Source of the DNA: a virus
Reading direction: 5' to 3' (one strand)
IMG/VR virus record: IMGVR_UViG_3300032291_003679
Span: 94,022-158,021 of that record
Length of the DNA stretch: 64,000 nucleotides
Positions 1 through 54,484 of the stretch are shown in pieces. The notes under the pieces are model-generated. The model was given only the letters and a program-made list of their open reading frames with translations. It was not told the DNA's origin and ran no database searches. Within the stretch, counting starts at the first letter, position 1, and every line of letters starts with the position of its first letter. Both the position numbers and the translations under genes were made by a program.

Positions 1-3000
1 ACCATTGACTGCAGTTCACTACCCGAGAATCGTGGCTCGTTACCCTTACTTGGGGTCCACACCGAACCCCTGTTCTGCGTGGCCGCTTCTAGGGTGTACG
101 CCAGGTCGGTAGCTTCGATTATTTTGTTGCGATTTTCTCTGGTATTAAGTTTTGGAAAACTCTTGTCGATAAATTCGTAAAGAGCCTCGTAGACGGCGTA
201 TTTTGGCCTCTTCATCTCCGTGTCGAACCTCTCGCCAGTATCAGATTCTTTCCATACCGATTTTGCGTCTGGAAGAACTCCATTGCGAATCATTTGAGCA
301 ATTGTTGCAGTAGGAATTCCTTTTCTTCTCCACGCATCATTGATTCCGATGGAATCCGTTCCAAAGGCTGATGAAAGTCGCTCCTGTAGACCCTTCTTCC
401 ATTCTTTTCTATCAATTCCAAGATAATCAAGAAGCGAATCAAGGTCGAAGTCTTCTATCGCGGTCTTGTCATCTCTGATTATTTCCCCAGAATCATCTAT
501 AGAGCCTTCTTCTGGCAGAAGCATGTCAAAAGATTCACCATAAAGGTCTATCTCTGCCTCAGAATCTCCTCTTGTTGCACTGTCTGGATAAAAACGGCCC
601 GAGGCTCTAAATTTAGATGTTTCACTTACTTCTCCAAGTTGAACATATTCCTCAGGGGTCATTGATTGATTTTCTTCAACATCAAACCAATATGGGAACG
701 CATCTTTGCCAAACGTTTCAATAATGAATCTGTCACGCATATTTGCGCGGCCAGCATTTTCAGATGCCAAATCAATTTGCGAAATGTCTTCTATGATGTC
801 GCCCTCTGGGGACTGCACTACTTTTTTGGCTTCATTTGCAGAAACTGGAGCAAAGTATCTCCACGCTGAAAGCTCTTTCTGCTTACCGAGTTCAGCAATC
901 AAGAGGCGCACAGCGTCGTGGTTGATTCCAGCATCTGGTTCTCTCATCTTTGCTGCGTTAGCAGGGCTCAACCCAAGCATCTTAGAGATTTCATCCCTTG
1001 TTGCTGGTCGTGACTGTGTCCACCTGATTGTCGAACCGTCTTCGGTATTAAAATTTTCTCTTGAAGTAAATTCTGTTGGGATTCTTATCGTGTCAGCAAG
1101 CTTGTCAATAGAGAGCATCCACGTTTCGGCCGACGGATTCTCGTTTTTGTTGTTGTCACTAATTTTGCCAATACGCACACGTTCTTGACGTGCTTTCATC
1201 GCTTTGCCAACGTTCTGCATTGCGCCGCGAGTGCGTGATTGACGCACCGGCACTGAAAGCGAGTCGTCATCTATGTCAATCGCTATGCCGCGCTTACGTA
1301 CGCCGTCCCATGCCTGCATGGCGAACTGAAGTGCTTGTCTGTTTTTGCTGGAGTTTGGGTCTCCGTTTATTCTCAATCCGGCGAGCTGTTGTGCGCTTAG
1401 GCTACCTCCGTAGATATTGCTTCCAGAAATTTTTCTGCTTCTACGTGTCAGGCGTCTGCTTCCATCGGTGGTTGCTCCACTAGACAGTGTCATTCCTAGA
1501 ACGTCGTCGATGTCACCTTCGTCAACTACTTCATCATCGTCGTCACCTTCTGGAAGTACGAAATCGTCTTCTCCAGGTTTTCCATCTTCACCGAATTCGT
1601 AATCTTCTTCATCAATTTCAGTAATGATGCCTTCAACTTCTTCAGAATCACCATCATCATCAACTGGTACAGGAACCACAATAACTTCGTCGTCTTTTTC
1701 ATCAGTAGGACGAGCTGGGAATCCATTTTCCAGTTCTGAAAGCGACATGGCATTAATTGCCTTGTACCAATCTGGAAGAGGAATCCCGTCCTTATCACCG
1801 AAGGCTCCTCTATCAAGCTCTGGTGGGATATGCCCATCTACAACAGCTTGCTTCATTGCATCACGTATTGCTTTTGTTCGCTCGTCATGCAAGTAATAAA
1901 AGAAACCAGCATTGCCTGGGTCTAACATTTCTTTTGCGCGGGAGAATGCAACATGGACTAGGTTTCCCTCTTCCATGAAGCCAATACCAGCTTCGCCTTG
2001 CGCCAAGTTGCTTGGAAGATTCTGGGACGGGTCTCCCATGTCTTCTGCTACTGCGACGAATCGAGACTCACGACCCTTAGAGAGCTGCATTGTTGTGATT
2101 TCAACATCTCCGCCCCCAGTCTTGGCCGCATCGCGCACTGCTTGAGCAATTTGTGCAAGTATCTCAGTGCTTTCTTCTAGGGTTTCACCTTTAATAACAA
2201 AACCGTCATAATGGCGACGCCCAGCCTGTCCTTCAATTCTAAAGCCACGCTCAGCTTCCTGCATTACTTCAATTTTGTCCTGAAGTCCAAGCTGAATGAT
2301 TGCTTTTTCAAGGTCCCTGCGGTATCTGCCGTTGTTTGAGCCGCGACCTCCTGGTGGAGTATTTACCTTTTGACTTCCGTCTGGCCTGTCTATTGGTCGA
2401 CCGGTGTCCACGCCGTCGCCGGTTATTATTATTCGACCAGTTGCTTTTCCTGGGGATTTGTCACTACCCCCTTCAATTTCAAGAGCAGCATAAACAGCTT
2501 GCTTAAACGTGTCGTCAACGTTGGGAATAATGAAAAGCTTTTCTCTCTGTGTTGATTTAGCTTTCCATGCGGACTTTTGTCTTCCGGCTATTTCTCTTAT
2601 TTGGTCAACACCAACATTCCAGTTATCGAGTTCCATCGTCTTGCGTTCTGGAATTAAAACTGCTGGGATTATGTCAATTTTTTCCTTGCCCTTGGCTTTG
2701 CCTTTTTCGTGAACCCCTTTAACGACGGTTCCCTGAAGGAGTTCTAGCATTCCCTTTGTGCCAAGAGCTTTGCCTGTTGGGTCATTCTTGGGTGGCTTCA
2801 TTATCAAGTTATAAGCAGAACGTGCTTGCTGATATCTTGCTTGACTAAGAGCCTTTTGTAGCGCGCCAGTTGTCCAGACGTTGCCTAGCCACCCAGATGC
2901 CTGTGGTTTACCGAATCGTGCAACATAATCTCGCTGCTGTTGTGGTGTTCGGTTAATAAAATCAAGATGCTTCGTAAAGGTAACTAGCTGCTCCCACTTG

Positions 3001-6000
3001 GATGCTGGAATAATTACTTCCGGCAACTTTGGCATGCCGCGTTCGTCTTTCTTAACAGCCCTGCTGTTAATGACGATATTAATAAACTTAAGAGCTTCGT
3101 TGATTATTTCGGCATTTGTTCTACACAAAATCATCGTCGGCAGATTTCCCTTGTCGGCCTCTTCGTATCTGTCGACTATTCTTCCTTCCTTTGGCGCGTA
3201 AAGTTTATCTCTTAATTCCTTAAGGGCTTTATCTTGCTCTCTTCTGCTTAGGGATGAAATATTTAGCTTCTCCGTGGGGGAAGAATATTTTTTCTCAATT
3301 TTAGCAATCAGGAGCTCTCGGGTTGCATCATCAAGTTCTTCAACAGGGAAATTTCCGCGTCTGTCTTCTTTTGGTAACAATGGGTCAAACTGTCTATTAA
3401 TGACCGTTTGTGCCTGACCCTTAACATGCTTCCATGCAACTGGTTGTGGAACCCCTTGCTTCGTTAGATGCAGGTTCTGTCCACCCAAAACAAGGTTTGT
3501 CGCATGACCGATAACTCCGCCGTATCTAAATGACTCAGTAATGCTCTGCGCATACTCCGGCTGTAGTGACTCAAGAATATTTTTTGAATCACGGAATGCG
3601 TAAACTGCTTGCCTGTCGTCGCCAACAATTATAATTGGAAGTTTATCCCTATTTCTATCAAGGACAGTTTCCAGAACTTCGTTAGTATCTTGCGATTCGT
3701 CAACCATAAAGGCACCGAGAGGATTCTCTGGTGTCGCTACTTTTTTGCGTAAAGTTGCTCTGGACGTTTTCCCGGCCTTGTCCGAAATCGTCGTAACAAT
3801 CCACTCTTCTCCATCGGCAACATACGTATCGCCTTCACTAAGAGATGACGGAATGGCGACTTTTGCTCTTGTCTGATTGCTTGAATGGGTAATTAAGCCT
3901 GGGTCTGTTCTTAGGTCTGGGTCCGTCAGCATCCAAAGTTTTGCTATTAGTTCCATTGATGGCATAACGTTAGAGTCACCATCTGAAATTTGGTCAACTA
4001 TCGACTGGACCGAATCAATCCATAGCTTTGGAATTGCGCTTTCCGGCAAAATGCTATCTACTCCGCCGGGCTTTTTCCCATGGCCGCGCGGCGTATCTAA
4101 GTCTTCTATGGCCTTTTTGGGCTGCATAAAATGTTGGGCAGTAACTTTTTCTTCTTTCGAAAGCCCCCATCTTCTGAGGGCGTTGGCAAGAAGGTCACCC
4201 ATTTCAGAAAACTCTACGAACTCACCGTTTGGAAGTTCGAATCCATCAACTTCTACTTCAACTTTTGTTTTTTTGCCTTTTTCATTAAGGACTGGCTTGC
4301 CTGTCGTGTCTACGACAGTTACCATCTTTTTTTTCTTTTTTTGGTTTGGCCACTTGTTTATTTCAAGATGTTTTACAAAATCTTCACCCGACTCAAGCAC
4401 TACCCATCCCAATGCCTCTAGGCCTGGGTCTTCGCCTACAAATGTTTCTATTGTTCCATCAAAAGTTTCCCTGACAAAGTTTTTACCAATCATCTTTTCG
4501 ACGTCTGGTGTTTCTTCTTCGCTTTTCCACTTCGGATTACGTCGCATGGACTTTTTGCTATCGCGGGATTTGTTTAGCATTACCAGCTTCCGGCGCATAC
4601 CTTTTCCATACCTGGCGTCACCTTGGCCAAGGCGTAGCGACCACTGCCACAATTTGTCCGTTGTTGCAATACCAGTGTTTTTGGGGAATTCAACTTCAGC
4701 TTCTAATTGGTTTTTAGTGTTAAACACCGTGTAGAAAATGTTGCCAGTTTTATTAGCTTTTGCTAAGTCTGCTACCGTTTCTTCAATCTTGTCTGCTGGT
4801 ATTTTGCTGAAATCAACACCGTAAGTATCTGACAGATACGCTAATTGTTCAGCCCTGCGGACATCGCCTTCTGGCCAGAGTTCAAACTCTCTCTGAAGGG
4901 CCCACGCAATGCTCTTTAGTGTTGTTGTTTTGCCCGTTCCTGCACCAGCAAGAACGCTGAAAACTGCTGGATTTCTTTTATGTATAAGCGACATTGCTAC
5001 AGCTATGATGTCACGCTGTTCGTTAGTTGGTTCGTCCTTAAGGGCGAACGCAAGCCCAAGAGAGACTTTCTCGTCTATCCGTTCAATGTCTGCGACACCT
5101 TTTTGTTTGCCCTTTGGTGTTCCACTAATCGGGCCATCTTGTTTGCCGCTAGCTAACGCACCAGACGGAGTTATAACAACGCCGTCCTTGTTTTTGGCTG
5201 GGAGCCCTTCGAGTGACCGAGCGAGTTCTCTTTCGGAAGGGCTTGATGGAACAAAATCGTCAAAAGCTTCGGAGTCAAGAAGGTCTTCTAGCGGTCCTAC
5301 TATTGTCGTTGTCGGTTTGATTGGTTCAATGTCTTCGTATCCTGCAAGCATTGGCACTTCATACCATGAGTCCTCTTTGCCCTTGCGCTCATCGTCAGGG
5401 ATGCCGGCAAGACGACGCATTGTTGCCGAACGGTTAAGCAAGTAGTCGTTTGCTTGCTGAGCCTGAACGATTGCTCTATGAATTGCGAGAGGGTCTGAAC
5501 GTAGCTTCTTTAGCCAGCTATTTAGGTACAAAAGATGGTCTTCGCGTACTGTTGGCTCCAGACCCATTGACCCCATTGCGAATGCTGAACCTATTTCTGC
5601 AATCAATTCTTCGAATGCGTACTGGTCATCGCCGAATTCACGGCCCAGAGTTCTGTTTAGTCTTGTTGGGTGAGATGTCCAGTGAATTGTCTCATGCATT
5701 GCCGTCCCATAGAATGCGAGGGCATTCTCAAACTGTTCAAATGCTGGCATGTGAATCTTGTCAGTGGATGGACGATAAAAGGCTTGCTGGCCTTTTGATT
5801 CGACAAATGCTGGACCTATTTCTTGGATTACGTTTTCAATATCCTGCAACCGCTGCTCTTGGTTGATGTCAGTATCTTCAACTTCGTAATACTTGTTAGG
5901 AAGATTAGAAACATCATCAACGTTGTATACGGTTTGAACAACGTAATAGCGACCCATCTGGATTGCTTGTCCATCAGCGTTTATTACAGTTCTGCCATCA

Positions 6001-8918
6001 CGTGGCACAAGAATAGAAACGCCGCGAGCACTAGCTCCAGGCTTTAATTTTCCGCCTAGTTTTTCCCATTGCGTTCTGCCTGCCCATCTGTTTGTTTTGT
6101 AGCCGCGACTTTGCGCAGTAAGCAAAAGGGCTAGCTGATTCATGCCCTGGTAAACACGATTTTTAGTTGGGTTACGCGCAAAGATTTCCGGGTTGCGCCA
6201 CGGCATCTTCCATTGTTTTGTTTTGTCAGGGTTATCAATTAAGTCTTGCAGGACTTCGATAATCTCCTCGGCCATTCTCTTGTACATTTCCGCAAGGATT
6301 GGAGAGTCTTCTGGTATTTCTGCTTTATCTGGAAGTTTTCCGGATGAAAGTGCAGCACTAATTGGGCCGTCAAATTTTCTTATCTCGTTGTTGGTTCTCT
6401 TGTTTTTTGACTTATTTAGATATTTTGCGTAACCGCTAGAAAGCTTTTGCTCAGGGTCGTCTGGTATTGCTACGAACTCTGGCTTTCGGCCGCGGGCAAG
6501 TTCGAGGTTCTCTCTATCCTGGTCTTGCTGCATGATGGACGTGACAAGGTCCCTATCAGGAGGGATGCGAACGAACCCTGGCTTTCGGCCGCGGGCAAGC
6601 GGAGTGCTTCTGTCGATGACTTCTGGCTTCTCGTCTGGTATCTCTACAAATTCTGGCTTTCGGCCTTGGGAAAGACGCGTATTTCTATCGAGAACCTGTG
6701 GTTGCTTCGGCTTTTTCTTAGGCTTATCTGCCTCCGCTATTTCGTCTTCAGCCATCTTCTCGACACGATTCATATACTTGTCAAGGTCAGCAATAGCCTT
6801 CTTTAGCTTCTTTATCTGGTCAGCGTCAGTAGCGCCGTCCAGCACTCCCTGTAGTTCGTCTCTTTGAGATTCTGCGGCACCGTATTTTTCGGCTGAATCA
6901 ACATCTGGGTCGTCTATTCGCGGAAGGTCTAGCGGGATTTTCCCTGAAGATAGACGCTCGGTCCGAGCAATAGTTTCTGATTCTGGCTTAGAAAGCTGAC
7001 GGGGTGACGGCTTTGGGTTACGAATTGAGCCAGGACCATCTGGAGTTGGGTCCGGAGTAGCAAGTGGGACGCCACGAAGGAATAGACCTTCACCGACGAC
7101 TCCGTTGAGGTTTGCGTCACGAGCTGTGAATGGGTCAAAGTCTTCTGCCCCGATTGAGGTAAAGAACCTTCCACGTGAACGACCGCCTCCAATGTTAGGA
7201 CGGTCGATTAGGCGACTGCCGATAGCGCGTCCGAGGCGGTAACCAGCCGCCTTCCACTCTATGTCATTCTCACCTAGAGATTTTTTTTTTAGATTATCAA
7301 CAGCCGTATCGATGGCTTCAATCAGCTCAAAGCTGACACCAGAGGTGATGACGATGCCGTTGACATCCACAAAGGAGTCGACATTGTGATAGTCAAAGAT
7401 TGGGTCTAGAGCTTGTTTTACTTGAAAGGCAAACTGAGGCACCACTGGAAGCAAGTATGGCTTCTGGTCGAAATTGTCATCTTTTGTTGAGCCAAACTCG
7501 CTGAGAAGCTTAAACTTACGACGCTTCTTGCGGCGTCTCCCAACAACTCCACGGAGTGCTGCAACTGCAAGTTCTCCTGGATACTTTACTTCCAGGTCAG
7601 CAATGTAGTCCTCTTCGTTGAATTCTTCGTCAAGTTCATAAGTCTTCTTAGATGCTGTGTCGCCGGTGACTACTCCCTTGGGAATTACGGCAAATCTGCA
7701 CTTGCCTTCTGGCTCGACATCCATGGCGATTATCTTGCAAGAATTTCCACCTTGGTAGAAGACGCAGTTTGCGCACTTAACGCCAATTGCAGCAACTGGG
7801 TTTTCAGCTGCAGGCTTATAGCCAGCCCAAACGCCGTCAGAATCCTCGTTGAAACGACCGTGGCGCTTAACAATCTTAAGAAGAGCATCTCTTAAGTCTG
7901 TTTCTTCTTGGTCGAGATTGTTTTTGTCAAACTCTGGCTGATTTCTTTCATCATCCATGTCTTCGTATTGGACGGGGGGCAGAGGAACCATACGGTTGCC
8001 GTTTTCTCCAGGCTTAATAGCAATTGGCATCGCCGGCATTTGTGATGGGCGAATCACTCTTTGTGGCTCATTTGCAGGGACACCAGGTGCCAGCATTGGC
8101 ATATTCTGCATTGGCGCAACTGGCTTGCGTGCTGGCATCACCACAATCTGCTGTGGTGGACCAAACATGTAGCGTCCGCGGTTCCCACTAAATCCGCACT
8201 TGTAGCGACCGACTTCACCATTGTCCATTCTGCGGGCAAATGTAATTTCGTCGTCGTTTACGTCCATCAGTGAAACTTTTGCACCAAGGATTGTAGCTAG
8301 TTGCTTTTCTATTTCAGCCTTGTCGATGGCGTCTTCGTCGTCTTCCATCATCGCCATCATGACGCCACTGGCGTTGTCGTCAGACTTAACTGAAATTGTT
8401 CCAGTAAGTTGATTTGCTCCATGTAAAACGGGCGAGACCTCGTAAAGTTCAAGTTCGTAAATAACGTTTGCTTGAGACTTTTGGTCAAACTGGGCCCGAA
8501 GGGTCTTGTATCCGATTGACCATTCCTGCTCTTCTCCAAAGAAAGCAACCATGGCAAAAGCTTCCCGACCTTTTTCTGAATTAAGGTTGAATTGCACACG
8601 GGCGAACAGGCCACCAATGCCAGCCATTTTCATCTTAAGTGGCAAGCGATTGTCCGTATTTGGAACTTCGTAAATCTCTAGAACTTTACCGATTGGGTCA
8701 TTCCAGCTATGTCCCCAGACAACTCGTGGCTTACGGCGTTGGAGGCTCTTGGCGAATGCTCCACTTGCAACAATGTCACCAACGGAGTCTTTGTTACCAA
8801 TACCAGCAACGAAACACTCAACTATGCCCTGAGCCTCATCAAGGTTGATGTTTCCGCCCTTCGAAGAGAGCGAGTTACCAAGCGAAGTTGACTTGTATTC
8901 GAATAGTTCAGATGGCAT
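1..8918 (-). CDS. Giant prohead protease / ArdC / SF1 helicase polyprotein (3' end beyond window)
   Basis: A single open frame of 2,972 codons from ATG 8918 to the left edge, with no stop. Residues 1-180 look like an HK97-type prohead protease (U35): His70 in VVWGHSWNDPIG and Ser134 in EWSIGYK are the likely catalytic pair. Cys382, 385, 394 and 407 form a Cys4 cluster. Residues about 875-1110 match ArdC: an N-terminal ssDNA-binding-like part (KMPWRNP, YQGMNQLALLL), then a zincin with HETIHW at 1075-1080 and a downstream Glu in EELIAE. Residues about 1295-2340 are an SF1 UvrD-like helicase: Walker A AGAGTGKTT (Lys1330), Walker B VDESQDT (1740-1743), GDDRQAVY, and VAFSRAKE (Arg2327). An Asp/Glu-rich stretch follows (about 2395-2475), then an unrecognised region. 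The domain calls are firm; joining them in one gene is unusual. It lies downstream of the portal, where a maturation protease is expected. Packaging of the extra domains in the head is inference. Confidence 0.87.
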   Translation of the reverse strand, partial: MPSELFEYKSTSLGNSLSSKGGNINLDEAQGIVECFVAGIGNKDSVGDIVASGAFAKSLQRRKPRVVWGHSWNDPIGKVLEIYEVPNTDNRLPLKMKMAGIGGLFARVQFNLNSEKGREAFAMVAFFGEEQEWSIGYKTLRAQFDQKSQANVIYELELYEVSPVLHGANQLTGTISVKSDDNASGVMMAMMEDDEDAIDKAEIEKQLATILGAKVSLMDVNDDEITFARRMDNGEVGRYKCGFSGNRGRYMFGPPQQIVVMPARKPVAPMQNMPMLAPGVPANEPQRVIRPSQMPAMPIAIKPGENGNRMVPLPPVQYEDMDDERNQPEFDKNNLDQEETDLRDALLKIVKRHGRFNEDSDGVWAGYKPAAENPVAAIGVKCANCVFYQGGNSCKIIAMDVEPEGKCRFAVIPKGVVTGDTASKKTYELDEEFNEEDYIADLEVKYPGELAVAALRGVVGRRRKKRRKFKLLSEFGSTKDDNFDQKPYLLPVVPQFAFQVKQALDPIFDYHNVDSFVDVNGIVITSGVSFELIEAIDTAVDNLKKKSLGENDIEWKAAGYRLGRAIGSRLIDRPNIGGGRSRGRFFTSIGAEDFDPFTARDANLNGVVGEGLFLRGVPLATPDPTPDGPGSIRNPKPSPRQLSKPESETIARTERLSSGKIPLDLPRIDDPDVDSAEKYGAAESQRDELQGVLDGATDADQIKKLKKAIADLDKYMNRVEKMAEDEIAEADKPKKKPKQPQVLDRNTRLSQGRKPEFVEIPDEKPEVIDRSTPLARGRKPGFVRIPPDRDLVTSIMQQDQDRENLELARGRKPEFVAIPDDPEQKLSSGYAKYLNKSKNKRTNNEIRKFDGPISAALSSGKLPDKAEIPEDSPILAEMYKRMAEEIIEVLQDLIDNPDKTKQWKMPWRNPEIFARNPTKNRVYQGMNQLALLLTAQSRGYKTNRWAGRTQWEKLGGKLKPGASARGVSILVPRDGRTVINADGQAIQMGRYYVVQTVYNVDDVSNLPNKYYEVEDTDINQEQRLQDIENVIQEIGPAFVESKGQQAFYRPSTDKIHMPAFEQFENALAFYGTAMHETIHWTSHPTRLNRTLGREFGDDQYAFEELIAEIGSAFAMGSMGLEPTVREDHLLYLNSWLKKLRSDPLAIHRAIVQAQQANDYLLNRSATMRRLAGIPDDERKGKEDSWYEVPMLAGYEDIEPIKPTTTIVGPLEDLLDSEAFDDFVPSSPSERELARSLEGLPAKNKDGVVITPSGALASGKQDGPISGTPKGKQKGVADIERIDEKVSLGLAFALKDEPTNEQRDIIAVAMSLIHKRNPAVFSVLAGAGTGKTTTLKSIAWALQREFELWPEGDVRRAEQLAYLSDTYGVDFSKIPADKIEETVADLAKANKTGNIFYTVFNTKNQLEAEVEFPKNTGIATTDKLWQWSLRLGQGDARYGKGMRRKLVMLNKSRDSKKSMRRNPKWKSEEETPDVEKMIGKNFVRETFDGTIETFVGEDPGLEALGWVVLESGEDFVKHLEINKWPNQKKKKKMVTVVDTTGKPVLNEKGKKTKVEVEVDGFELPNGEFVEFSEMGDLLANALRRWGLSKEEKVTAQHFMQPKKAIEDLDTPRGHGKKPGGVDSILPESAIPKLWIDSVQSIVDQISDGDSNVMPSMELIAKLWMLTDPDLRTDPGLITHSSNQTRAKVAIPSSLSEGDTYVADGEEWIVTTISDKAGKTSRATLRKKVATPENPLGAFMVDESQDTNEVLETVLDRNRDKLPIIIVGDDRQAVYAFRDSKNILESLQPEYAQSITESFRYGGVIGHATNLVLGGQNLHLTKQGVPQPVAWKHVKGQAQTVINRQFDPLLPKEDRRGNFPVEELDDATRELLIAKIEKKYSSPTEKLNISSLSRREQDKALKELRDKLYAPKEGRIVDRYEEADKGNLPTMILCRTNAEIINEALKFINIVINSRAVKKDERGMPKLPEVIIPASKWEQLVTFTKHLDFINRTPQQQRDYVARFGKPQASGWLGNVWTTGALQKALSQARYQQARSAYNLIMKPPKNDPTGKALGTKGMLELLQGTVVKGVHEKGKAKGKEKIDIIPAVLIPERKTMELDNWNVGVDQIREIAGRQKSAWKAKSTQREKLFIIPNVDDTFKQAVYAALEIEGGSDKSPGKATGRIIITGDGVDTGRPIDRPDGSQKVNTPPGGRGSNNGRYRRDLEKAIIQLGLQDKIEVMQEAERGFRIEGQAGRRHYDGFVIKGETLEESTEILAQIAQAVRDAAKTGGGDVEITTMQLSKGRESRFVAVAEDMGDPSQNLPSNLAQGEAGIGFMEEGNLVHVAFSRAKEMLDPGNAGFFYYLHDERTKAIRDAMKQAVVDGHIPPELDRGAFGDKDGIPLPDWYKAINAMSLSELENGFPARPTDEKDDEVIVVPVPVDDDGDSEEVEGIITEIDEEDYEFGEDGKPGEDDFVLPEGDDDDEVVDEGDIDDVLGMTLSSGATTDGSRRLTRRSRKISGSNIYGGSLSAQQLAGLRINGDPNSSKNRQALQFAMQAWDGVRKRGIAIDIDDDSLSVPVRQSRTRGAMQNVGKAMKARQERVRIGKISDNNKNENPSAETWMLSIDKLADTIRIPTEFTSRENFNTEDGSTIRWTQSRPATRDEISKMLGLSPANAAKMREPDAGINHDAVRLLIAELGKQKELSAWRYFAPVSANEAKKVVQSPEGDIIEDISQIDLASENAGRANMRDRFIIETFGKDAFPYWFDVEENQSMTPEEYVQLGEVSETSKFRASGRFYPDSATRGDSEAEIDLYGESFDMLLPEEGSIDDSGEIIRDDKTAIEDFDLDSLLDYLGIDRKEWKKGLQERLSSAFGTDSIGINDAWRRKGIPTATIAQMIRNGVLPDAKSVWKESDTGERFDTEMKRPKYAVYEALYEFIDKSFPKLNTRENRNKIIEATDLAYTLEAATQNRGSVWTPSKGNEPRFSGSELQSM
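6330..6960 (-). repeat. Linker with repeated L-S/A-x-G-K/R motifs in the polyprotein
   Basis: This low-complexity linker lies between the Cys4 cluster and the ArdC domain. Six copies of a short motif start at Leu656 (LSSGKIP), 749 (LSQGRKPEF), 774 (LARGRKPGF), 807 (LARGRKPEF), 826 (LSSGY) and 857 (LSSGKLP). Several continue as xxxIPxD about five residues later. The same core recurs outside the linker at Leu17 (LSSKG), Leu1255 (LASGK, between ArdC and helicase) and Leu2478 (LSSGA, after the acidic tail). At DNA level the GRKPEF/GRKPGF copies share a near-identical stretch, so recent duplication is likely for those three. Confidence 0.8.
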
Positions 8919-9049: not shown

Positions 9050-11155
9050 TTAAACAGTCTGCCCAAAACCCCAAGCCGCCCTGGTTTCCCGCTCCGCGAA
9101 AGAGTCTTGTTGATGAGCGAAAAACTCCGTAAACATCTCTACAAGTCCGTCTCGGAAGAAAGAGAATCTCTTTTCCTCGTCCGCATACTCAAAAGATTTG
9201 AGCATTAGTGAATTTATTTCACTGAAGTGTGACTCGTTAATCTTTTTGATTCTTGCAACATGAGCATCAATCATTGCTCGAACATCTTTTGCGGGCAGTG
9301 CCTTTACTCTGAGGCCCTTCTCCGATGCTTCGTTCACTCGTGACTCAAACGAGTCATTGATAATTGAAGAAATAACCGGCCTGATGTCTTCATCAAATTG
9401 CTTGTTCCATGTGTCTATGGACAGAACCGATTCGATGTCAAGAGTTCCATGCATTAGTGCTTTTTTGGACTTTAGTCCGCTTGCTTTTTCAAGAACTACC
9501 CGCTGCTGGCGCTCCATGACTCTTTCTACTCCGCGTGAGAGAATGTTGGTCCAACGCTCAATCGATTGTTCATTTCTATCGACTGATTCTTTTTCTGAAT
9601 CATCAGACTTTGTCTCAATCTCAGATTCTGGGGATGAAGCGACCGTTGTTGGTGCTGGAGGCATTGCTGTCTGCGGTATCCCGCCGAAAGCCTCTGGTGG
9701 AACAGTTGTTTGCGCAAGCTGTCCTTCTGCTGCTGTCTCGGCAAGAGCACCAGCCATTGTGTTCGTATCGAGCGGCATGACTTCTCCGCCTGGAGGAATA
9801 GGTGCTGGGGCACCTGGAGGCATTCCTGGCATACCTGGGGGCATTCCTGGCATTCCTGGCATTCCTGGCATTCCTGGCATTCCTGGTGCTCCTGGAATCT
9901 GTGTTTGTCCCTCTTCCATCTTCTTTTTGGTATTGGCGATAGGAATGAGGTTTGGATTTTGCAGCAGAGAGTCAGCAAGGTCTGCTTCTACTTCTTTGCG
10001 TGAAGAACCCATTCTGTATTCGTTTGCGCTGATAAGACCAGACTGGAACTCTTGGAGAAGGTATTTGTCTCTCTCTTGCTTATAAAGCATAAGGATTGGC
10101 ACTTCGGACGTATCAAAATCTAAATAGAATTTTTCATCAAGTTCGTCAAGGCCACGAGCCAATGGCTCTAGGTGAGGAAGCATTGTCTCCATCCAGAAAA
10201 CACGAATTTCTTCAGCTGCGTTACTAAATGTTCTTCCTGCAGCATTTCCGATAACTGATTCCGGGACACCGAAGGATGAAAGAATTTCTTCTTTTGTTAT
10301 CTGTCGCATCTGAATATATGCAGCATCACGCGGGTTCGCGGAAGTATCAACAAAATCCACCCCATCGTCTGCTGCAATAACCGTCGTATGGCCTGCTTTT
10401 GCAAGATTTCCACGGAATCTGCTTCTTAGCTCTTCCTTGTCGTCCTCGTCAATTGCGCCCCTAACGACCAAAAGTCCACCAGGGCGGCCATCGTTTAGGA
10501 GGTAGTTGCGGTTATAAAGTTTGGCTAGGTTTTCAATTTCAATTGCTACGCCAGCTGCCTCTAGGGGTGTTAGAGACAGGTATGGGTCAAGTGGATGAGG
10601 TCTTCTTATCCAGCAAACATCTTCTGGCTTGAGAATTCTTTTTTCTCCATATGGCATCTGCACTTCATAGCCAGATACAAAAGTTTTAGGGTCGGGGATT
10701 GGGGCTGTTGATTGGGGCGGAAGAAGGTTGAGCGCGATGATGCGACCATCTCGCCCAAATATTTTCTCAATAAATGCGCCGCGAGTTCCAAGAAGCAACT
10801 GGGCAGAAAGCCTGTATCTGAATATAAAGGAGTTTTCTCCAACATTTGCTTTATTATTCAGAAGCTCCAGAAGGGTTGAGCGATTTGCTTCTCTACCTAC
10901 AACTATTTCGCCCTTATTTGAGTTGTTTTTTCTGAGAATTATTGGAAGTCGCGCTTGGTTGCCAGCGATTGCATCAATACACCTGTTAACCCAGGTGATT
11001 TTTGACATTCCTTCACGGTAGGCGCGCTCAATATCCCAAGAGTCACGGTATGCCTTCCCAGCAAGAGATGGGTTAATGGAGATAGGCGCTCCATACCCAA
11101 CGTCCTTTCTGGACTGGGAATTTATGTTTTTGTTTTGAGGTGCGTTCCAAGCCAT
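9050..11155 (-). CDS. Portal protein (HK97-like family), extended C-terminus
   Basis: A 701-residue protein. Residues about 25-410 read as a phage portal of the HK97/SPP1-like superfamily (for example RGAFIEKIFGRDGRI, then EEILSSFGVPESVIG, a typical portal segment, then AAEEIRVFWMETMLPHLE). The portal forms the dodecameric DNA channel at the head vertex. After the portal core comes a Pro/Gly/Met tract (about 422-455), a Ser/Glu-rich linker, and a helical, charged C-terminal domain (about 540-701) that I do not recognise; a MuF-like head-morphogenesis role is possible. Typical portals are 400-550 residues, so this is long. It is preceded by a small membrane protein (8-bp gap) and followed by the protease fusion, the usual portal-protease order. 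Confidence 0.88.
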   Translation of the reverse strand: MAWNAPQNKNINSQSRKDVGYGAPISINPSLAGKAYRDSWDIERAYREGMSKITWVNRCIDAIAGNQARLPIILRKNNSNKGEIVVGREANRSTLLELLNNKANVGENSFIFRYRLSAQLLLGTRGAFIEKIFGRDGRIIALNLLPPQSTAPIPDPKTFVSGYEVQMPYGEKRILKPEDVCWIRRPHPLDPYLSLTPLEAAGVAIEIENLAKLYNRNYLLNDGRPGGLLVVRGAIDEDDKEELRSRFRGNLAKAGHTTVIAADDGVDFVDTSANPRDAAYIQMRQITKEEILSSFGVPESVIGNAAGRTFSNAAEEIRVFWMETMLPHLEPLARGLDELDEKFYLDFDTSEVPILMLYKQERDKYLLQEFQSGLISANEYRMGSSRKEVEADLADSLLQNPNLIPIANTKKKMEEGQTQIPGAPGMPGMPGMPGMPGMPPGMPGMPPGAPAPIPPGGEVMPLDTNTMAGALAETAAEGQLAQTTVPPEAFGGIPQTAMPPAPTTVASSPESEIETKSDDSEKESVDRNEQSIERWTNILSRGVERVMERQQRVVLEKASGLKSKKALMHGTLDIESVLSIDTWNKQFDEDIRPVISSIINDSFESRVNEASEKGLRVKALPAKDVRAMIDAHVARIKKINESHFSEINSLMLKSFEYADEEKRFSFFRDGLVEMFTEFFAHQQDSFAERETRAAWGFGQTV
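9842..9886 (-). repeat. Tandem 9-bp repeat encoding Gly-Met-Pro in the portal
   Basis: Five perfect tandem copies of CATTCCTGG on the plus strand (minus-strand PGM triplets), flanked by diverged copies on both sides (roughly 9790-9900). The tract is in frame and encodes a collagen-like flexible linker. Copy number is likely to vary by slippage without breaking the frame. Confidence 0.9.
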
Positions 11156-11497: not shown

Positions 11498-12811
11498 ATG
11501 GCTGGAAAAGCTAACTGGGAAGAAGTCCTTGAATACCTCAGCCCCAAAATGCCTTCATTTTGTCCGGAGGAGCCATCTATAAACCAAAAAGTTTTCTTGA
11601 GAACCAATTCACTTGAGGGACTATTTGGTGGGGCTGCCGGTGGAGGCAAGTCCAGTGCTCTTTTGATGGCTGCACTGCAATACGTAGATGTCCCAGGGTA
11701 CTCTGCAATCCTTTTCCGTAGGACATTTGCGGACCTTTCGCTCCCTGGAGCTCTGATGGACCGCTTTAAGTCATGGATGAGCAACTACGACGATGTCCAC
11801 TGGAACAACAACACATTCGTTGCCACCTTCCCATCCGGTGCGCGTATTTCTTTCGGATACTTAAATAACGTTAATGACTATCTCCGCTACAAAGGTTCCG
11901 AATTTCAGTTCATAGGAATGGATGAGGTCACGGAAATCCGTGAATCTGACTACAGATACCTGTTCTCCCGTCTCCGCCGTCCTGCAAGCGGACCAATCGC
12001 CCAAGTCCCACTCAGAATGAGGGCTGCGTCAAACCCTGCCCCCAACTGGGTGCGTCAGCGCTTTATCGTGGAAGGCAAGGAGACTGGAAGGGTGTTTGTC
12101 CCATCTACGCTAAAAGACAACCCTGGAATTGACGCTGACTCATACCGACAGGCTCTGTCAGCCCTTGACCCAGTGGAAAGAAGAAGACTTGAAGAGGGCG
12201 ACTGGTGGTCAACCACCCTGGGCAGCCTGTTTGAGCGGGAATCTTTCATAATTATTGACGCCGACGAGATACCACTTATAACCAACTCAGCGAGAGTTGT
12301 CAGGTTCTGGGACCTTGCAGCCACCGAGCCTCACGCTGGCAACCCTGACCCTGACTGGACGGTTGGGACGCTCATGCTGTTTGACGGGGGGGTTTCCTAC
12401 ATTCTTGATGTTAGGAAGGCGCGCGTAAAAGGAGAAAAAGTAGAGCAATTAATCTCCGAGACCGCCGAAGATGACGGATACGGGGTTTCAATTAGAATGG
12501 AACAAGAACCCGGTTCTTCCGGAAAGGCCTTGGTTGACCAGTACGCCAGATACGTCGTTCCTGGGTATGACTTTGGCGCAATGAGGCCGACCGGAGACAA
12601 GGTGACAAGGGCTAGGCCGTTCGCCGCTGCTGCCGCCAACGGAAACGTTCGCCTGGTTCGTGCCCCTTGGCTCACTGACTGGCTGGACGAATTTTCTTCA
12701 TTTCCAGAAGCCGCGAACCACGACGACCAGGTTGACTCCGCTGTTGGAGCTTTTACTTTTTTGACTGGTTTGGGGTTGCCTCAACGCAAACGTGCTTCTA
12801 TAATTTTCTAA
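11498..12811 (+). CDS. terL: Terminase large subunit
   Basis: 437 residues, the DNA-packaging motor: N-terminal ATPase plus C-terminal RNase H-like nuclease. Visible motifs are Walker A GGAAGGGKSS (about 45-54), Walker B FIGMDEV (about 138-144) with the catalytic Glu, the SNPAPNW coupling-type segment, the first nuclease Asp in VRFWDLAATEP (about 272), and the C-terminal nuclease acid in NHDDQVDSAVGAF (about 406-418). Length is normal for the family. It is transcribed away from the portal and protease, so terL and portal are divergent rather than in the usual single operon. No small terminase is recognisable nearby. The start has no ribosome-binding site and may be leaderless. Confidence 0.95.
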   Translation: MAGKANWEEVLEYLSPKMPSFCPEEPSINQKVFLRTNSLEGLFGGAAGGGKSSALLMAALQYVDVPGYSAILFRRTFADLSLPGALMDRFKSWMSNYDDVHWNNNTFVATFPSGARISFGYLNNVNDYLRYKGSEFQFIGMDEVTEIRESDYRYLFSRLRRPASGPIAQVPLRMRAASNPAPNWVRQRFIVEGKETGRVFVPSTLKDNPGIDADSYRQALSALDPVERRRLEEGDWWSTTLGSLFERESFIIIDADEIPLITNSARVVRFWDLAATEPHAGNPDPDWTVGTLMLFDGGVSYILDVRKARVKGEKVEQLISETAEDDGYGVSIRMEQEPGSSGKALVDQYARYVVPGYDFGAMRPTGDKVTRARPFAAAAANGNVRLVRAPWLTDWLDEFSSFPEAANHDDQVDSAVGAFTFLTGLGLPQRKRASIIF

Positions 12812-25780: not shown

Positions 25781-28700
25781 ATGGCAGACGAAAACGTCGA
25801 CATTAAGATTAGGTTTGACGCCAAAACGGCGGACCTTAATCGTGCCATCGCAAAACTTGCTGTACTAGAAAAACAAGTAAAGAAGCTCTCCAGCGGTAGA
25901 GAAGAAGCGTTTGCGCGACGAACAACAAACACCCTTAGCAATGTAACCAAGGGCTGGAAGCGTAGTTTTGACTTCATAGATGCCGGTGCAAAAATGGCCG
26001 GTAAGGGACTCACCAAGTTTCTTGGATTAGCCATAAAGGGTGTAGTCGTAGAAATGGGGCTCCTGGCTGCAGCAATGGTTGGCGTCCACGCACTGTTTGT
26101 CGCTGGCCAATTTATAATGAAGGCGTACCGAGGGGCAATGCAAATGCTGGCGGCAGGCGCAGCTGGTGTAACAGTCGCTATGGCTGCTGCGTCTGCAGCA
26201 ATCCGTGAGCAGCAGGCTGCAATATTTGCCTATAGAGGCAAGGGTGCTCCGGCTTTTGGTTCAGCAATGAACCAGACCCGCATGGGGATGCGCAACCTTC
26301 AAAGCGATGCAAGTTTAGCGACTTTAGGTGTCGAGGCATTAAATAAGGCCTACGGCAATATGTCGAAGTCAATGAATACTGCCCAGATAAATAAAAGCGG
26401 CGGTGCAATAAAAGCATTGATGGATTTTGGCTCCGCTGGTCAAGACCCTGCAAAAGGACTAGAACAGGTATCGATAGTAATAGCATCTTTGTCTGATAAG
26501 AAAAAGGGAATTTCAGATGTCATAACAGAGGCCAAAAAGCTTGGCCCAGAGATGGAGCAGGCCCTAAAAAAAGCCAACGTTAAGACAAAGAAGCAATTTC
26601 AAGAATTGCTCATGTCTGGGGAGCTTGCTAAAAGCGGTGGCGTTACGGGCCAGTTTGATGCCGTAAATGGCACCCTAATTAGTCAACTAAAAGGATACTT
26701 CACTCGCCTGCGTGGTGAGTTTGCAGACTTTGGTGACCAGTTCCTAGAACCGCTAAAGGAAGCTTTCGACCGAGTCTTTGGAACAATCAGACGTGACTTA
26801 CAGCGCGTAATGGGCGCTATCATGTTCAGCTTTGGCACCCAGGGTGTTATTGATAATTTTTCAAGTGCTATAGAAAAAGCATCTAACTGGCTCGTAAAAA
26901 TGATTCGCGAATATCTGCCTGGAGCTATAGGCATGTTCGACAGAATCGGTGATTGGTTTACTAGATTTAAGCGCGGGTGGAACCTTGTACTTGACCAAAC
27001 CAGACCGCTCATAGACGGTGCTCGCGTTCTTTACAAAGCATTTGAGCCAGTTTGGGACGCGCTGAAGCGTGGGGCAGACAACTTAACCCTGTTTCGCGAA
27101 CTGCTTATACAAAACCAAGACAATGTTCAAGAATTTGGTGAACGTATTGGGAAACTGATTGATTCACTTTCTAAGTTCTTCATGAACATGAAGAAAATGT
27201 TTATGGATATGCTTCCGTTCCTTAACGACCTTGTCTCTGGCCTGACGACAGTGTTTGACATGATTTCCAAGATATTTACTTCCGGCGCAGGCAAAGGTCT
27301 AGCTGGAGCGCTTGCCCCTCTTATGGGGTTTTCTATTTTGGGAAGAGCTCTTTCTGGAGTAAAGGGACGCCTAATGCCGAACGTTGGCGCAATGTCCGCA
27401 CAGCAAATGAATGTAACGGCAAACAACGTTTCTATCGCCAACCCAGTTGGTCCAGTGGCGGGGTCGCGAACAATGTTTGGCGGTGGACCACTTTTTTCTG
27501 GGGCACCTGGCAGCTATCCGTCTGGACCATCTGGGACACCTGGAGCAACATCATCTGCAGGAACAGCAACAGCAGCAGGTAGTGCAGCGCTTGCTGCTCT
27601 CTCGTCGGGCAAAACTTCTGGTGGAAACTTTTTAAAGATGCCAAGCGGAGGAGCAGTAAGCAAACTTGCAGACAATCCACGCAACACACTTAGATACAAC
27701 ATGCTCACTGGAAGCAGGATGACGGTTCGCGGGAGCGATATAAATCAACGAGAAAAAGAACGGTTTACTCAACGCCAACAATTGGGACGTGGCCTTGGCT
27801 ATTACATGTTCGGTCAAGCTTCTAACCCATACGCGAAAATGGAAGGAGATGCAGCAGCTCGTGCCTCCGCCCGCTTTGAGGCAACACAGGGGCTGCAGAG
27901 CCTGTCTATGGACGAGCTACATAAAGTAGCGGTAGATAAACATGGAATTACTGGGTTGACCGATAAGACATCACGTACAGACGTAATTGCACGAATACAA
28001 GGTTCTGCTGGGTATAAAGATGAAGATTACGCCGGAATGAGGAAGGTAGGACTCGGAGAGGCGATTAAAAACACGAGAGGAAGAATGCGCTTTGCCGCTA
28101 CGGGGGTAATGGATAGGGCACAGTATGCAGGAAGACGTGTTTCTGGGGCATACCAAGGAGCCATGGCTTACTTTAATTCTGGTGCATTTAATCCTGAAAC
28201 AGGTGAATATTACGACCTTAAAGATGCTCGTGACAAAATAGATGAGCGGTTCCAGAAAACCAAAGATGAAGCTGGTGGCAGTAAAAGAAAACTTCTTAGA
28301 GGAAGAATAGATAGGGCAAGAGATTCAAACAGGCTTAACAGAACGTATGGAAAATTTGGCAACGCATACAATGTGAAGTTTGCTAAAAGCGCCAGCGGAC
28401 GTATGGGTGCAGGCATGGGTCTTGGTCTAATGAGCCAAGTCGCTCCAGAAGAAATGCGTGGAGCAATGGCGCTGGGTGCAACTGTTGGACAAATCGACCC
28501 ACGTTTGGGAATTGCTGTTGCCGGAATAGGCGGAGCCATGAAGGCTCAGGGAGCAATGAAGGGTGCCCTCTCTGGCGCTGCTGGTGGAGCTGCTTTAGGC
28601 GGAATGCTTGGACCGCATGGAGCAGCAATCGGTGCCGGAATCGGTCTTGTTGTTGGCGGCATTATGGGTGCCGTTAATAAGGGAAAACAGCAGCTAAAAG

Positions 28701-30586
28701 AAGCCAGGGAAACTGTACACAAGAGTCTTGGCGAGTTTTACATGGCTAGCCTGAAGTCGTCAGGCGAACAGTTTGAAAAAAACCGTAAGATTCTTGAATC
28801 CGGCGGGAGCCTCGAAGGCAAATCTGGAGCTATGCAGGGAGCTGGAGCCAAATTTGCAGCCGCACAAGGGAAGGTGCGCACTTCAATACTTTCAGCCATA
28901 GAAGCAGGGGGCGGAGGGTATGGAAGCGGTGGCGACAGGGAATTCTATGACCCCAAAAAAATACTTGACGAATATTACAAAACTGAAGAGGGAAGCAAAG
29001 TATCTACTGAGGATAGAAAGAAACAAAAAAAACGTGCCACAAATACGGTTCGTGAACTTCTTAAAGCAACCGACCCAGCAGTGCAGACGCAGCTCAAGGA
29101 AATTGACAAAGTCAACAACGACAGAATAGCTGCCCTTTCCCGCGCAACAGGAAAGAGTGGAGCAGAGTTAGAGCAATTAGCAAAAAGTATGGGCGTGGAC
29201 CTATATGACGCAACGGTCCAATATGACGAACTTCTTGGGAAATTTACTGCGAATCTCAGGAAAAACAAGGAGCAATTAAATGCCGCTCTTACTGATACCT
29301 TTCTATCTGGAGCTAATCCTTTTACGAAAAAACGAGAAGCAGGAGAAGCGCAGTATGCGCTAAACCAAAACTTTAGACAACTTGGCGACATTCTTCGTGG
29401 CGGCGGCACTAAAGCAGAAAAAATGGGTGCTGTCGACTCCAGTATGGAGCAAGCATTCAGTCAGATACTAACGGTTGCTGGTGGCGATGCTTTTAAGGCA
29501 TACGACATATATAACAGAATGTTTATGTCTGGTGCAGACCAGGGAATATTTGCTCAAGGTGCAGAATTTGAAGGCCAATCAGAACATTTCCTCGGAAATG
29601 CAACATTTAATGAATCTTCTAGATTAATTACAGAGGGAGTTAACTCTGAAGCAGCAACGCAAATTCGTGGCTATCTCGCAGAGAAGAACATGAGCGTTGA
29701 CACTGGATTGCTAGAAGCGTCTCTAAACAAGATGACACCAGACCAGCAACGGAGTCTTCTTTATGACCTCAAAACAATGGATGAGGACACAAGTGTTCCA
29801 AAAGCTGGCGAGACAAACGACCTAAAAAAGGCCCTTAAGAGAAAAACAGGGGGCGGAATAGAGCAGGTCTTGGCTACCGCCTATGGCCTTGAGGGAATAG
29901 CAATTACTGGTGAAAAAACTGAGAGCCTGGACAAGATAGCAACAGCCGCCACAGACTTCTCTACCGCTGCAGACGGTCTCAAAACAGCAGTCGAAACATT
30001 CAATACCAACATGACTGGATTCTTCGACGCCCCTCTCGGTAATGCACCGGAATGGTGGAAAAAAGGACTGAAAGTTACCGGCGAAGGTGATGACATGCGC
30101 CTCATGCCAGACGCAGACACATCTACTCCTCGTGCAGGACAAGTTGGCGATACTGCCACAAGCAAGCTTTCTCAAACAATGTCCCGTCATGCTGCGATGA
30201 ACGGTCAGCTAACAGGTAAAAGAACAGTTACATCGAGCCTGCGAAACTATGCGCTTGGTTCACCAAGTTCCGACCACGCAACTGGTTCAGCATATGACCT
30301 CACTGGACAAAATCTTGGACAATACGCCAAGCTTGTTCATGCCAACGGTGGGTTTGCTGAGTTCCATGGAAGCATGGCGAATAGGCATCTACACGTAGTC
30401 CCAGGCCCAGGAGTTGGGGATACCAGCACCTCCCGGCCAATTTCATCCGTAACTACCGGCGGTGGGGGAACAACGAATTACTATTCAATCGAGATAAATG
30501 GTGGAAATGCCTCTCCAGAAGCAATCGCAAACATGGTAATGGCAAAACTAAAAGACCAGGAACGCTCAAACAGGGAGCGCAGATAA
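25781..30586 (+). CDS. Tape measure protein with C-terminal M15-like peptidase domain
   Basis: 1,601 residues, the longest complete gene in the window. Helical N-terminus (IAKLAVLEKQVKKLS), hydrophobic stretch (about 75-150), a second Gly/Ala-rich membrane-like region (about 880-970, GAAIGAGIGLVVGGIMGAV) and long charged coiled regions fit a tape measure that sets tail length and helps DNA cross the membrane. At about 0.15 nm per residue it predicts a tail near 240 nm. Residues about 1470-1545 carry SPSSDHATGSAYDL and NRHLHVV, the zinc-ligand pattern of M15/VanY peptidases, so it probably also cleaves peptidoglycan peptides during entry. An LSSGK motif near residue 607 resembles those of the protease polyprotein. 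Confidence 0.92.
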   Translation: MADENVDIKIRFDAKTADLNRAIAKLAVLEKQVKKLSSGREEAFARRTTNTLSNVTKGWKRSFDFIDAGAKMAGKGLTKFLGLAIKGVVVEMGLLAAAMVGVHALFVAGQFIMKAYRGAMQMLAAGAAGVTVAMAAASAAIREQQAAIFAYRGKGAPAFGSAMNQTRMGMRNLQSDASLATLGVEALNKAYGNMSKSMNTAQINKSGGAIKALMDFGSAGQDPAKGLEQVSIVIASLSDKKKGISDVITEAKKLGPEMEQALKKANVKTKKQFQELLMSGELAKSGGVTGQFDAVNGTLISQLKGYFTRLRGEFADFGDQFLEPLKEAFDRVFGTIRRDLQRVMGAIMFSFGTQGVIDNFSSAIEKASNWLVKMIREYLPGAIGMFDRIGDWFTRFKRGWNLVLDQTRPLIDGARVLYKAFEPVWDALKRGADNLTLFRELLIQNQDNVQEFGERIGKLIDSLSKFFMNMKKMFMDMLPFLNDLVSGLTTVFDMISKIFTSGAGKGLAGALAPLMGFSILGRALSGVKGRLMPNVGAMSAQQMNVTANNVSIANPVGPVAGSRTMFGGGPLFSGAPGSYPSGPSGTPGATSSAGTATAAGSAALAALSSGKTSGGNFLKMPSGGAVSKLADNPRNTLRYNMLTGSRMTVRGSDINQREKERFTQRQQLGRGLGYYMFGQASNPYAKMEGDAAARASARFEATQGLQSLSMDELHKVAVDKHGITGLTDKTSRTDVIARIQGSAGYKDEDYAGMRKVGLGEAIKNTRGRMRFAATGVMDRAQYAGRRVSGAYQGAMAYFNSGAFNPETGEYYDLKDARDKIDERFQKTKDEAGGSKRKLLRGRIDRARDSNRLNRTYGKFGNAYNVKFAKSASGRMGAGMGLGLMSQVAPEEMRGAMALGATVGQIDPRLGIAVAGIGGAMKAQGAMKGALSGAAGGAALGGMLGPHGAAIGAGIGLVVGGIMGAVNKGKQQLKEARETVHKSLGEFYMASLKSSGEQFEKNRKILESGGSLEGKSGAMQGAGAKFAAAQGKVRTSILSAIEAGGGGYGSGGDREFYDPKKILDEYYKTEEGSKVSTEDRKKQKKRATNTVRELLKATDPAVQTQLKEIDKVNNDRIAALSRATGKSGAELEQLAKSMGVDLYDATVQYDELLGKFTANLRKNKEQLNAALTDTFLSGANPFTKKREAGEAQYALNQNFRQLGDILRGGGTKAEKMGAVDSSMEQAFSQILTVAGGDAFKAYDIYNRMFMSGADQGIFAQGAEFEGQSEHFLGNATFNESSRLITEGVNSEAATQIRGYLAEKNMSVDTGLLEASLNKMTPDQQRSLLYDLKTMDEDTSVPKAGETNDLKKALKRKTGGGIEQVLATAYGLEGIAITGEKTESLDKIATAATDFSTAADGLKTAVETFNTNMTGFFDAPLGNAPEWWKKGLKVTGEGDDMRLMPDADTSTPRAGQVGDTATSKLSQTMSRHAAMNGQLTGKRTVTSSLRNYALGSPSSDHATGSAYDLTGQNLGQYAKLVHANGGFAEFHGSMANRHLHVVPGPGVGDTSTSRPISSVTTGGGGTTNYYSIEINGGNASPEAIANMVMAKLKDQERSNRERR

Positions 30587-50716: not shown

Positions 50717-54484
<3,768 letters not shown>

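What the first reader, a model, noticed from the sequence alone, without database searches (positions are those of the whole stretch)
1..8918. Prohead protease fused to an antirestriction domain and a helicase in one giant frame
One frame of at least 2,972 codons joins an HK97-like maturation protease (His70/Ser134), a Cys4 cluster, an ArdC-like domain (HETIHW, 1075-1080), an SF1 helicase (Lys1330 to Arg2327) and an unknown tail. Prohead proteases are normally 200-250 residues and act inside the head. A fused cargo would be packaged and could be delivered with the DNA: ArdC against restriction, the helicase to process incoming DNA. Packaged antirestriction proteins are known (P1 Dar proteins, T4 internal proteins), but I know of none encoded as a protease fusion.
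Basis: partly seen in the sequence, partly recalled or inferred. Interest (0 to 1): 0.9.

Follow-up and report, generated by a model that had tools for sequence, protein, structure and literature searches.

The report
Phage polyprotein with built-in head protease
A virus of actinobacteria joins its head-maturation protease to an antirestriction enzyme, a helicase and an unknown domain in one 3,020-residue protein, and a short peptide motif that changes from phage to phage sits at every domain junction, which suggests that the protease cuts this and two other giant proteins into separate cargo that could be carried in the virus head.

Summary
The frame is complete at 3,020 aa (stop 145 bp left of the window) and carries a Peptidase_S78 protease (His70/Ser134), a Cys4 cluster, ArdC-N plus MPTase-PolyVal zincin, a UvrD-type helicase and an unknown tail. 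It lies between portal and major capsid genes. Full-length homologues occur in several separate assemblies, so it is not an assembly error.

A short motif, LSSG[KRA], sits at the junctions protease|ArdC|helicase|tail and recurs in two other giant proteins of the phage (20 copies, 0.26 expected). In relatives the motif is phage-specific (LSSG, FSSG, GFAS, GLAS, GMAS, ISGR) but the same in all giant proteins of one genome (22 of 22). Four of six relatives with an unfused protease, and three related isolates, lack it. Best explanation (0.72): the N-terminal head protease cuts itself free and cuts several polyproteins at these sites into separate cargo proteins, probably packaged and ejected. Cleavage, packaging and ejection are inferred, not shown. 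Closest known: polyvalent proteins (Iyer 2017) and the phage-specific sites of T4/phiKZ/SPN3US head proteases. A new variant of a known kind.

The parts
1..8918 (-). Giant ORF, 3,020 aa in full (runs 145 bp beyond the window to G000:93877)
8352..8843 (-). HK97-type prohead protease (Peptidase_S78), residues 26-189, His70 and Ser134
   Evidence: Pfam 3e-11, PHROG 5e-27; His70/Ser134 invariant in 35 homologues
7698..7775 (-). Cys4 cluster, residues 382-407
   Evidence: consensus shared by homologues
6954..7271 (-). Module before the first motif, residues about 550-655. P0009 starts with a related module, and the C-terminal part of unfused proteases aligns to the corresponding region of fused relatives
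6939..6953 (-). Junction motif LSSGK, residue 656 (predicted cut releasing the protease)
   Evidence: low-confidence segment 643-659 in the model
6660..6674 (-). Degenerate motif LSQGR, residue 749
   Evidence: not conserved in orthologues
6585..6599 (-). Degenerate motif LARGR, residue 774
   Evidence: not conserved in orthologues
6486..6500 (-). Degenerate motif LARGR, residue 807
   Evidence: not conserved in orthologues
6429..6443 (-). Junction motif LSSGY, residue 826
   Evidence: conserved in 4 of 5 orthologues amid indels; LARG in the fifth
6336..6350 (-). Junction motif LSSGK, residue 857, just before ArdC
   Evidence: SSGK kept in all 5 orthologues aligned
5415..6290 (-). ArdC-N plus MPTase-PolyVal zincin (HETIHW at 5679-5696), residues 877-1168
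5142..5156 (-). Junction motif LASGK, residue 1255, between ArdC and helicase
   Evidence: conserved in orthologues as LASGK/LSSGR/LSSGA
1896..5042 (-). SF1 UvrD-like helicase, residues about 1293-2341 (motif I GAGTGKT, motif II VDESQD, motif III GDDRQAVYAF, motif VI VAFSRAKE)
1473..1487 (-). Junction motif LSSGA, residue 2478, between helicase and tail
   Evidence: conserved in the orthologues as LSSGA/LSSGT, FSSGR in G013
3..1472 (-). C-terminal tail (residues 2483-3020, last 48 outside the window); well-folded in the model (pLDDT 80), no match in PDB or BFVD
9050..11155 (-). Portal protein, next gene upstream
   Evidence: Phage_portal E=1.5e-49
11498..12811 (+). Terminase large subunit
25781..30586 (+). 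1,601-aa ORF in tape-measure position (after sheath, tube and chaperone) with two LSSG motifs (residues 36 and 607)

Best explanation
The giant frame is a self-processing polyprotein of the phage head. Its N-terminal HK97/assemblin-type prohead protease (Ser134/His70) recognises a short phage-specific motif, [RKGS]-[L/F/M]-[S/A]-S-[G/R], which here is LSSG[KRA]. It cuts itself free at the first copy (residue 656) and releases ArdC-zincin (about 860-1255), the UvrD helicase (about 1259-2478) and the tail (about 2482-3020) at the later copies. The same protease cuts in trans two further giant proteins of the same phage (2,391 and 3,479 aa, with 5 and 11 copies) and perhaps the tape measure. The products are head-internal proteins that are most likely ejected with the DNA: ArdC against restriction, helicase and exonuclease to process incoming DNA. 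Shown: domains, gene context, motif placement, concerted change of the motif within a genome, and its absence in several relatives with an unfused protease. Inferred: that the motif is a cleavage site, which bond is cut, packaging, ejection and cargo functions.
For: (1) LSSG occurs 20 times in the three giants against 0.26 expected; the other orderings of the same letters occur 0-1 times. Proteome-wide 22 against 1.5. (2) The copies use different codons: 22 copies, 20 distinct DNA 12-mers, so selection is on the peptide. (3) Copies lie at the junctions protease|ArdC|helicase|tail. Across seven giants 1 of 73 motifs falls inside a recognised domain against 14.5 expected. They are kept amid indel-rich linkers. 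In the model of residues 1-870, sites 656, 749, 774, 807, 826 and 857 all lie in segments with pLDDT below 50. (4) Relatives use other variants (FSSG, GFAS, GLAS, GMAS, ISGR), yet the protease giant and other giants of one genome share the same top variant in 22 of 22 genomes. The variants follow the protease tree: LSSG-type clade against a GxAS-type clade. (5) Homologous cassettes in other polyproteins carry the local variant: exonuclease next to LSSG or ISGR, ArdC next to LSSG or GFAS. Ends of cassettes shared between polyprotein types lie within 25 aa of a motif in 107 of 240 cases against 34.6 at random, p<=0.001. (6) Four of six relatives with an unfused protease (776-881 aa) have no such motif and two have ISGR; the three isolate genomes lack a repeated motif. 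The C-terminal part of the unfused proteins aligns to fused residues about 390-560, just before the first motif of the fused ones (511-535 in G040, G036, G035). (7) The motif persists in relatives without MPTase-PolyVal (G019, G021, G035, G036, G040). (8) No in-frame start with a strong Shine-Dalgarno at the junctions. Precedent: one protease, phage-specific site (SXE in phiKZ, AXE in SPN3US), several head substrates, self-cleavage (PMC5694885, PMC7411985).
Against: No proteomics or cleavage assay exists for these uncultured phages. The capsid protein, the canonical substrate, has no LSSG; the nearest candidate near the end of the delta domain (LNGGR/LANGR, an L-x-x-G-[RK] form) does not change with the motif variant. 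Two relatives with an unfused protease (G030, G034) still have a motif (ISGR), so fusion is not required. The fused/unfused contrast is essentially one branch of the tree, so it is not many independent events. When cassette ends are compared only across motif classes the excess near motifs is weak (177 vs 138, p=0.07). Every motif-bearing genome examined also has an HExxH zincin somewhere in its giants, so a zincin is not fully excluded as the cutter.
Confidence: 0.72

Rival explanations
1. The polyprotein is cut at these motifs, but by an embedded zincin (MPTase-PolyVal in this protein or the HExxH domain of the 2,391-aa protein), as Iyer et al. proposed for polyvalent proteins; the S78 domain only matures the capsid.
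For: MPTase domains are the usual candidate processing peptidase in polyvalent proteins (PMC5512222). An HExxH is present in the second giant of essentially every genome.
Against: The motif persists where MPTase-PolyVal is absent (G019, G021, G035, G036, G040). The second-giant HExxH is also present where no motif exists (G026, G028, G041, G042). Motif variants follow the S78 protease tree.
Confidence: 0.12
2. No cleavage: the motif is a short capsid-docking or packaging signal, or a fixed linker, and the intact fusion is packaged with the protease as carrier.
For: Phages do use short capsid-targeting sequences (T4 CTS, P1 DarB; PMC5694885, PMC9024508). Concerted, phage-specific variation could also track the capsid lattice.
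Against: Up to 18 copies in one chain, and copies at almost every domain junction, are unnecessary for targeting. The T4 CTS is itself a cleaved propeptide. The capsid protein is similar between LSSG- and GFAS-type phages while the motif differs.
Confidence: 0.12
3. The motif marks recombination boundaries or homogenised repeat DNA that help shuffle cassettes, without a function in the protein.
For: Cassettes do move between the giants, and their ends lie near motifs.
Against: The DNA of the copies differs: 20 of 22 are distinct at synonymous positions, 14 of 14 in G021.
Confidence: 0.03
4. The giant frame is an assembly artefact joining separate genes.
For: None found.
Against: Full-length frames in several separate datasets at 57-78% identity; S78 and MPTase in the same frame in most relatives.
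Confidence: 0.01

Closest known systems
Polyvalent proteins (Iyer, Burroughs, Anand, Aravind 2017, PMC5512222)
   Same: Many unrelated catalytic domains in one chain, ArdC-N plus MPTase, head-gene context, predicted packaging and injection; analogy to polyproteins and an assemblin-like peptidase in some members already noted.
   Different: That peptidase was reported as always C-terminal; here it is N-terminal. UvrD helicases were noted only in a few actinomycete plasmid-type giants. No recurrent junction motif or phage-specific cleavage site is found in the passages read.
T4 gp21 / phiKZ gp175 / SPN3US gp245 prohead protease systems (PMC5694885, PMC7411985)
   Same: One head protease cutting itself and several head-internal proteins at a short phage-specific motif (SXE in phiKZ, AXE in SPN3US).
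   Different: There the substrates are separate genes losing propeptides; here motifs separate whole enzymes inside giant chains that include the protease.
HK97-type (S78) prohead protease
   Same: Fold family, His/Ser pair, position next to the portal.
   Different: Fused to about 2,350 aa of cargo after the first motif; the capsid gene lies some 13.5 kb away.
P1 Dar system / T4 internal proteins
   Same: Packaged antirestriction proteins linked to head assembly and proteolysis.
   Different: Encoded as separate genes, no protease fusion.

Membership tests
Polyvalent proteins | Two or more biochemically unrelated domains in one polypeptide of a phage or plasmid | tested here: met
   S78, ArdcN, MPTase-PolyVal, UvrD
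Polyvalent proteins | Encoded in the head/packaging gene context | tested here: met
   Between portal and major capsid gene
Polyvalent proteins | Assemblin-like peptidase, when present, at the C terminus (reported pattern in Iyer 2017, not a defining requirement) | tested here: not met
   S78 at residues 26-189 of 3,020
Polyvalent proteins | Delivered into the host with the DNA | not testable with these tools
   Needs virion proteomics or ejection assays
HK97-type prohead protease (S78) | Profile match and catalytic His/Ser | tested here: met
   His70/Ser134 invariant in 35. Foldseek gave only a weak, non-significant herpesvirus-protease match (1vzv, E=0.38)
HK97-type prohead protease (S78) | Cleaves the capsid protein delta domain | not testable with these tools
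   The capsid protein has an N-terminal extension with LNGGR near its end but no LSSG
Multi-substrate prohead protease system (T4/phiKZ/SPN3US type) | Phage-specific short motif shared by several proteins of one phage and differing between phages | tested here: met
Multi-substrate prohead protease system (T4/phiKZ/SPN3US type) | Same motif at the capsid protein cleavage site | tested here: inconclusive
   L-x-x-G-[RK] in the capsid protein resembles LSSG[KR] but does not co-vary
ArdC antirestriction protein | ArdC-N followed by MPTase zincin | tested here: met
   activity untested
SF1 UvrD-like helicase | Motifs I, II, III, VI in order | tested here: met
   UvrD and PHROG helicase hits

The most novel reading that the evidence does not exclude
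A large clade of actinobacterial contractile-tailed phages encodes its ejected arsenal as true polyproteins, with the head-maturation protease as the N-terminal module. Protease specificity and dozens of cleavage sites spread over several genes have changed together from phage to phage, and cargo cassettes take on the local cleavage site when they move.
Probability: 0.6. Interest if true: 0.88.

Novelty: new variant of a known kind. Interest (0 to 1): 0.76.

Why it matters
Polyprotein processing by an embedded protease is a hallmark of RNA viruses and retroviruses; for tailed phages it has been only an analogy. If right, the motif parses giant phage proteins of unknown function into their real mature products, gives a ready system for studying co-evolution of protease specificity with many substrates, and offers a simple design for loading proteins into a phage head (protease, motif, cargo). 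It also makes the open question of who processes polyvalent proteins directly testable.

Tried and rejected
Assembly error: rejected. Internal translation starts at the junctions: no in-frame ATG/GTG with a strong Shine-Dalgarno in P0002 or orthologues G001 and G003; one at residue 185 in G002 (one list entry printed there is a script artefact). Isolated phages: the 2,391-aa protein has no match in INPHARED, and the best 40 of 102 records matched by the giant all match its ArdC part. Fold of the tail: confident model (pLDDT 80) but no significant match in PDB or BFVD. Fold search of residues 1-870: model too poor (mean pLDDT 59), best relevant match a herpesvirus protease at E=0.38, not counted. 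Solved relatives by sequence: none. Capsid cleavage site: no clear answer. Cross-class cassette test alone: weak (p=0.07). Papers: nothing found on phage polyproteins of this kind.

Full report
What is there. The window is bases 94,022-158,021 of a 158,021-bp linear IMG/VR contig. The giant minus-strand frame starts at window 8918 and ends 145 bp beyond the window, 3,020 aa in all. Pfam and PHROGs give an HK97-type prohead protease (S78), ArdC-N followed by the MPTase-PolyVal zincin, and a UvrD-type SF1 helicase. Portal is the next gene upstream; tail sheath, tube and chaperone lie to the right. On the minus strand follow a 523-aa acidic protein, a 2,391-aa giant, five more genes and the major capsid protein. 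The capsid protein is 46% identical to those of Gordonia and Brevibacterium phages and the contig carries two WhiB genes, so the host is most likely an actinobacterium.

Not an artefact. Eleven further IMG/VR contigs encode clear homologues at 57-100% identity, full length in several separate datasets. Among 46 records reached mostly through the capsid protein, S78 was found in 36 and MPTase-PolyVal in 26. Where both were found they share one open frame of about 2,900-4,900 aa, except in G018. Six relatives have the protease as a 776-881-aa protein instead, and the isolates Chidiebere, Cantare and GMA6 as a 429-501-aa frame.

The junction motif. LSSG occurs 22 times in the proteome against 1.5 expected, 20 of them in three giant proteins of 3,020, 2,391 and 3,479 aa; in those giants 0.26 are expected and the other orderings of the letters occur at most once. 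In the finding's protein LSSG/LASG sits at residues 656, 826, 857, 1255 and 2478, that is protease | linker | ArdC | helicase | tail. In five orthologues these sites are kept (as close variants where not identical) while the surrounding linkers gain and lose stretches. All six intact or degenerate sites in the modelled part (1-870) lie in low-confidence, probably disordered segments. Across seven giants 1 of 73 motifs lies within a recognised domain, 14.5 expected. The copies are not DNA repeats: 20 of 22 differ at the DNA level.

The motif is phage-specific and shared between genes. In relatives the over-represented tetrapeptide of the giants is LSSG, FSSG, GFAS, GLAS, GMAS or ISGR. In all 22 genomes where it can be scored, the protease giant and the other giants use the same variant. 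LSSG-type and GxAS-type phages form separate groups on a tree built from the protease domain alone. Homologous cassettes carry the local variant: the exonuclease of the 3,479-aa protein is flanked by ISGR in G030/G034 and LSSG in G020, and ArdC by GFAS in G043 and LSSG elsewhere. Ends of cassettes shared between different polyproteins lie near motifs three times more often than at random (107 vs 34.6, p<=0.001), though a test restricted to pairs from different motif classes was weak (p=0.07).

The unfused protease as comparison. Four of the six relatives with an unfused protease have no repeated motif; the other two have ISGR in their other giants. The isolates have no repeated motif of this kind in the portal-capsid region. 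The C-terminal part of the unfused protein aligns to fused residues about 390-560, and the first motif of the fused proteins follows soon after (511 in G040, 526 in G036, 535 in G035, 655 in G015, 656 here). The cargo thus appears appended after a complete protease, separated by the motif.

Which protease. The motif is present where MPTase-PolyVal is absent (G019, G021, G035, G036, G040), and the HExxH of the second giant is present where the motif is absent (G026, G028, G041, G042). So the motif tracks the S78 protease better than a zincin, but a zincin is not excluded. Phage-specific motifs shared by several head substrates, and self-cleavage, are established for the phiKZ/SPN3US proteases (PMC5694885, PMC7411985). 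By general knowledge, herpesvirus assemblin, the fold relative, cuts (V/L/I)xA|S, which resembles the GxAS variants; this is a lead, not a test.

What remains inferred. Cleavage itself, the bond cut, packaging, ejection and cargo activities were not tested. The capsid protein shows no LSSG and its likely processing region does not change with the motif variant, the main gap in the argument. The tail folds confidently but matches nothing known.

Comparison with the known. It belongs with the polyvalent proteins of Iyer et al. (PMC5512222), who noted the polyprotein analogy and an assemblin-like peptidase, always C-terminal, in some members. New here are the N-terminal head protease and the concerted, phage-specific junction motif across several giant genes. 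I rate it a new variant of a known kind.

Noticed in passing
G000:C1:58545-68984 (L008:548-10984, minus), left of the window: 3,479-aa protein with 11 LSSG motifs; contains an RNase_T exonuclease (Pfam 1e-8), weak GNAT matches and an HExxH stretch. It begins with a module related to residues about 530-640 of the protease giants of relatives.
   Followed up: partly
G000:C1:85000-92175 (L002:1003-8175, minus): 2,391-aa protein without any Pfam, PHROG or INPHARED match, with HEIAHH and five LSSG motifs; conserved in relatives.
   Followed up: partly
window 25781-30586 (+): ORF in tape-measure position carries two LSSG motifs (residues 36 and 607), so it might also be processed.
   Followed up: no
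L009:5834-7861 (676 aa) and L002:1003-8175: Both contain a similar cysteine module (CPEGYQYGGRFTDNRLSTCG and CPPGTPAANQFTDATGSNCFG); RCPE and YQYG recur in most relatives.
   Followed up: no
window 50717-54454 (-): 1,245-aa collagen-like protein of GATGPTG repeats, probably a tail fibre.
   Followed up: no
L117 and L132 (G034, G030): Unfused-protease phages that nevertheless carry an ISGRMG motif in their other giants, possibly an intermediate stage.
   Followed up: partly
L135:4605-13634 (-) (G004): 3,009-aa protein in a stretch with 9 LSSG motifs that also holds a GANLTGA/GADLTGA repeat, like pentapeptide repeats.
   Followed up: no
G000:C1:71920-72138 (-) and 8008-8199 (+): Two WhiB-family genes, pointing to an actinobacterial host.
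   Followed up: yes
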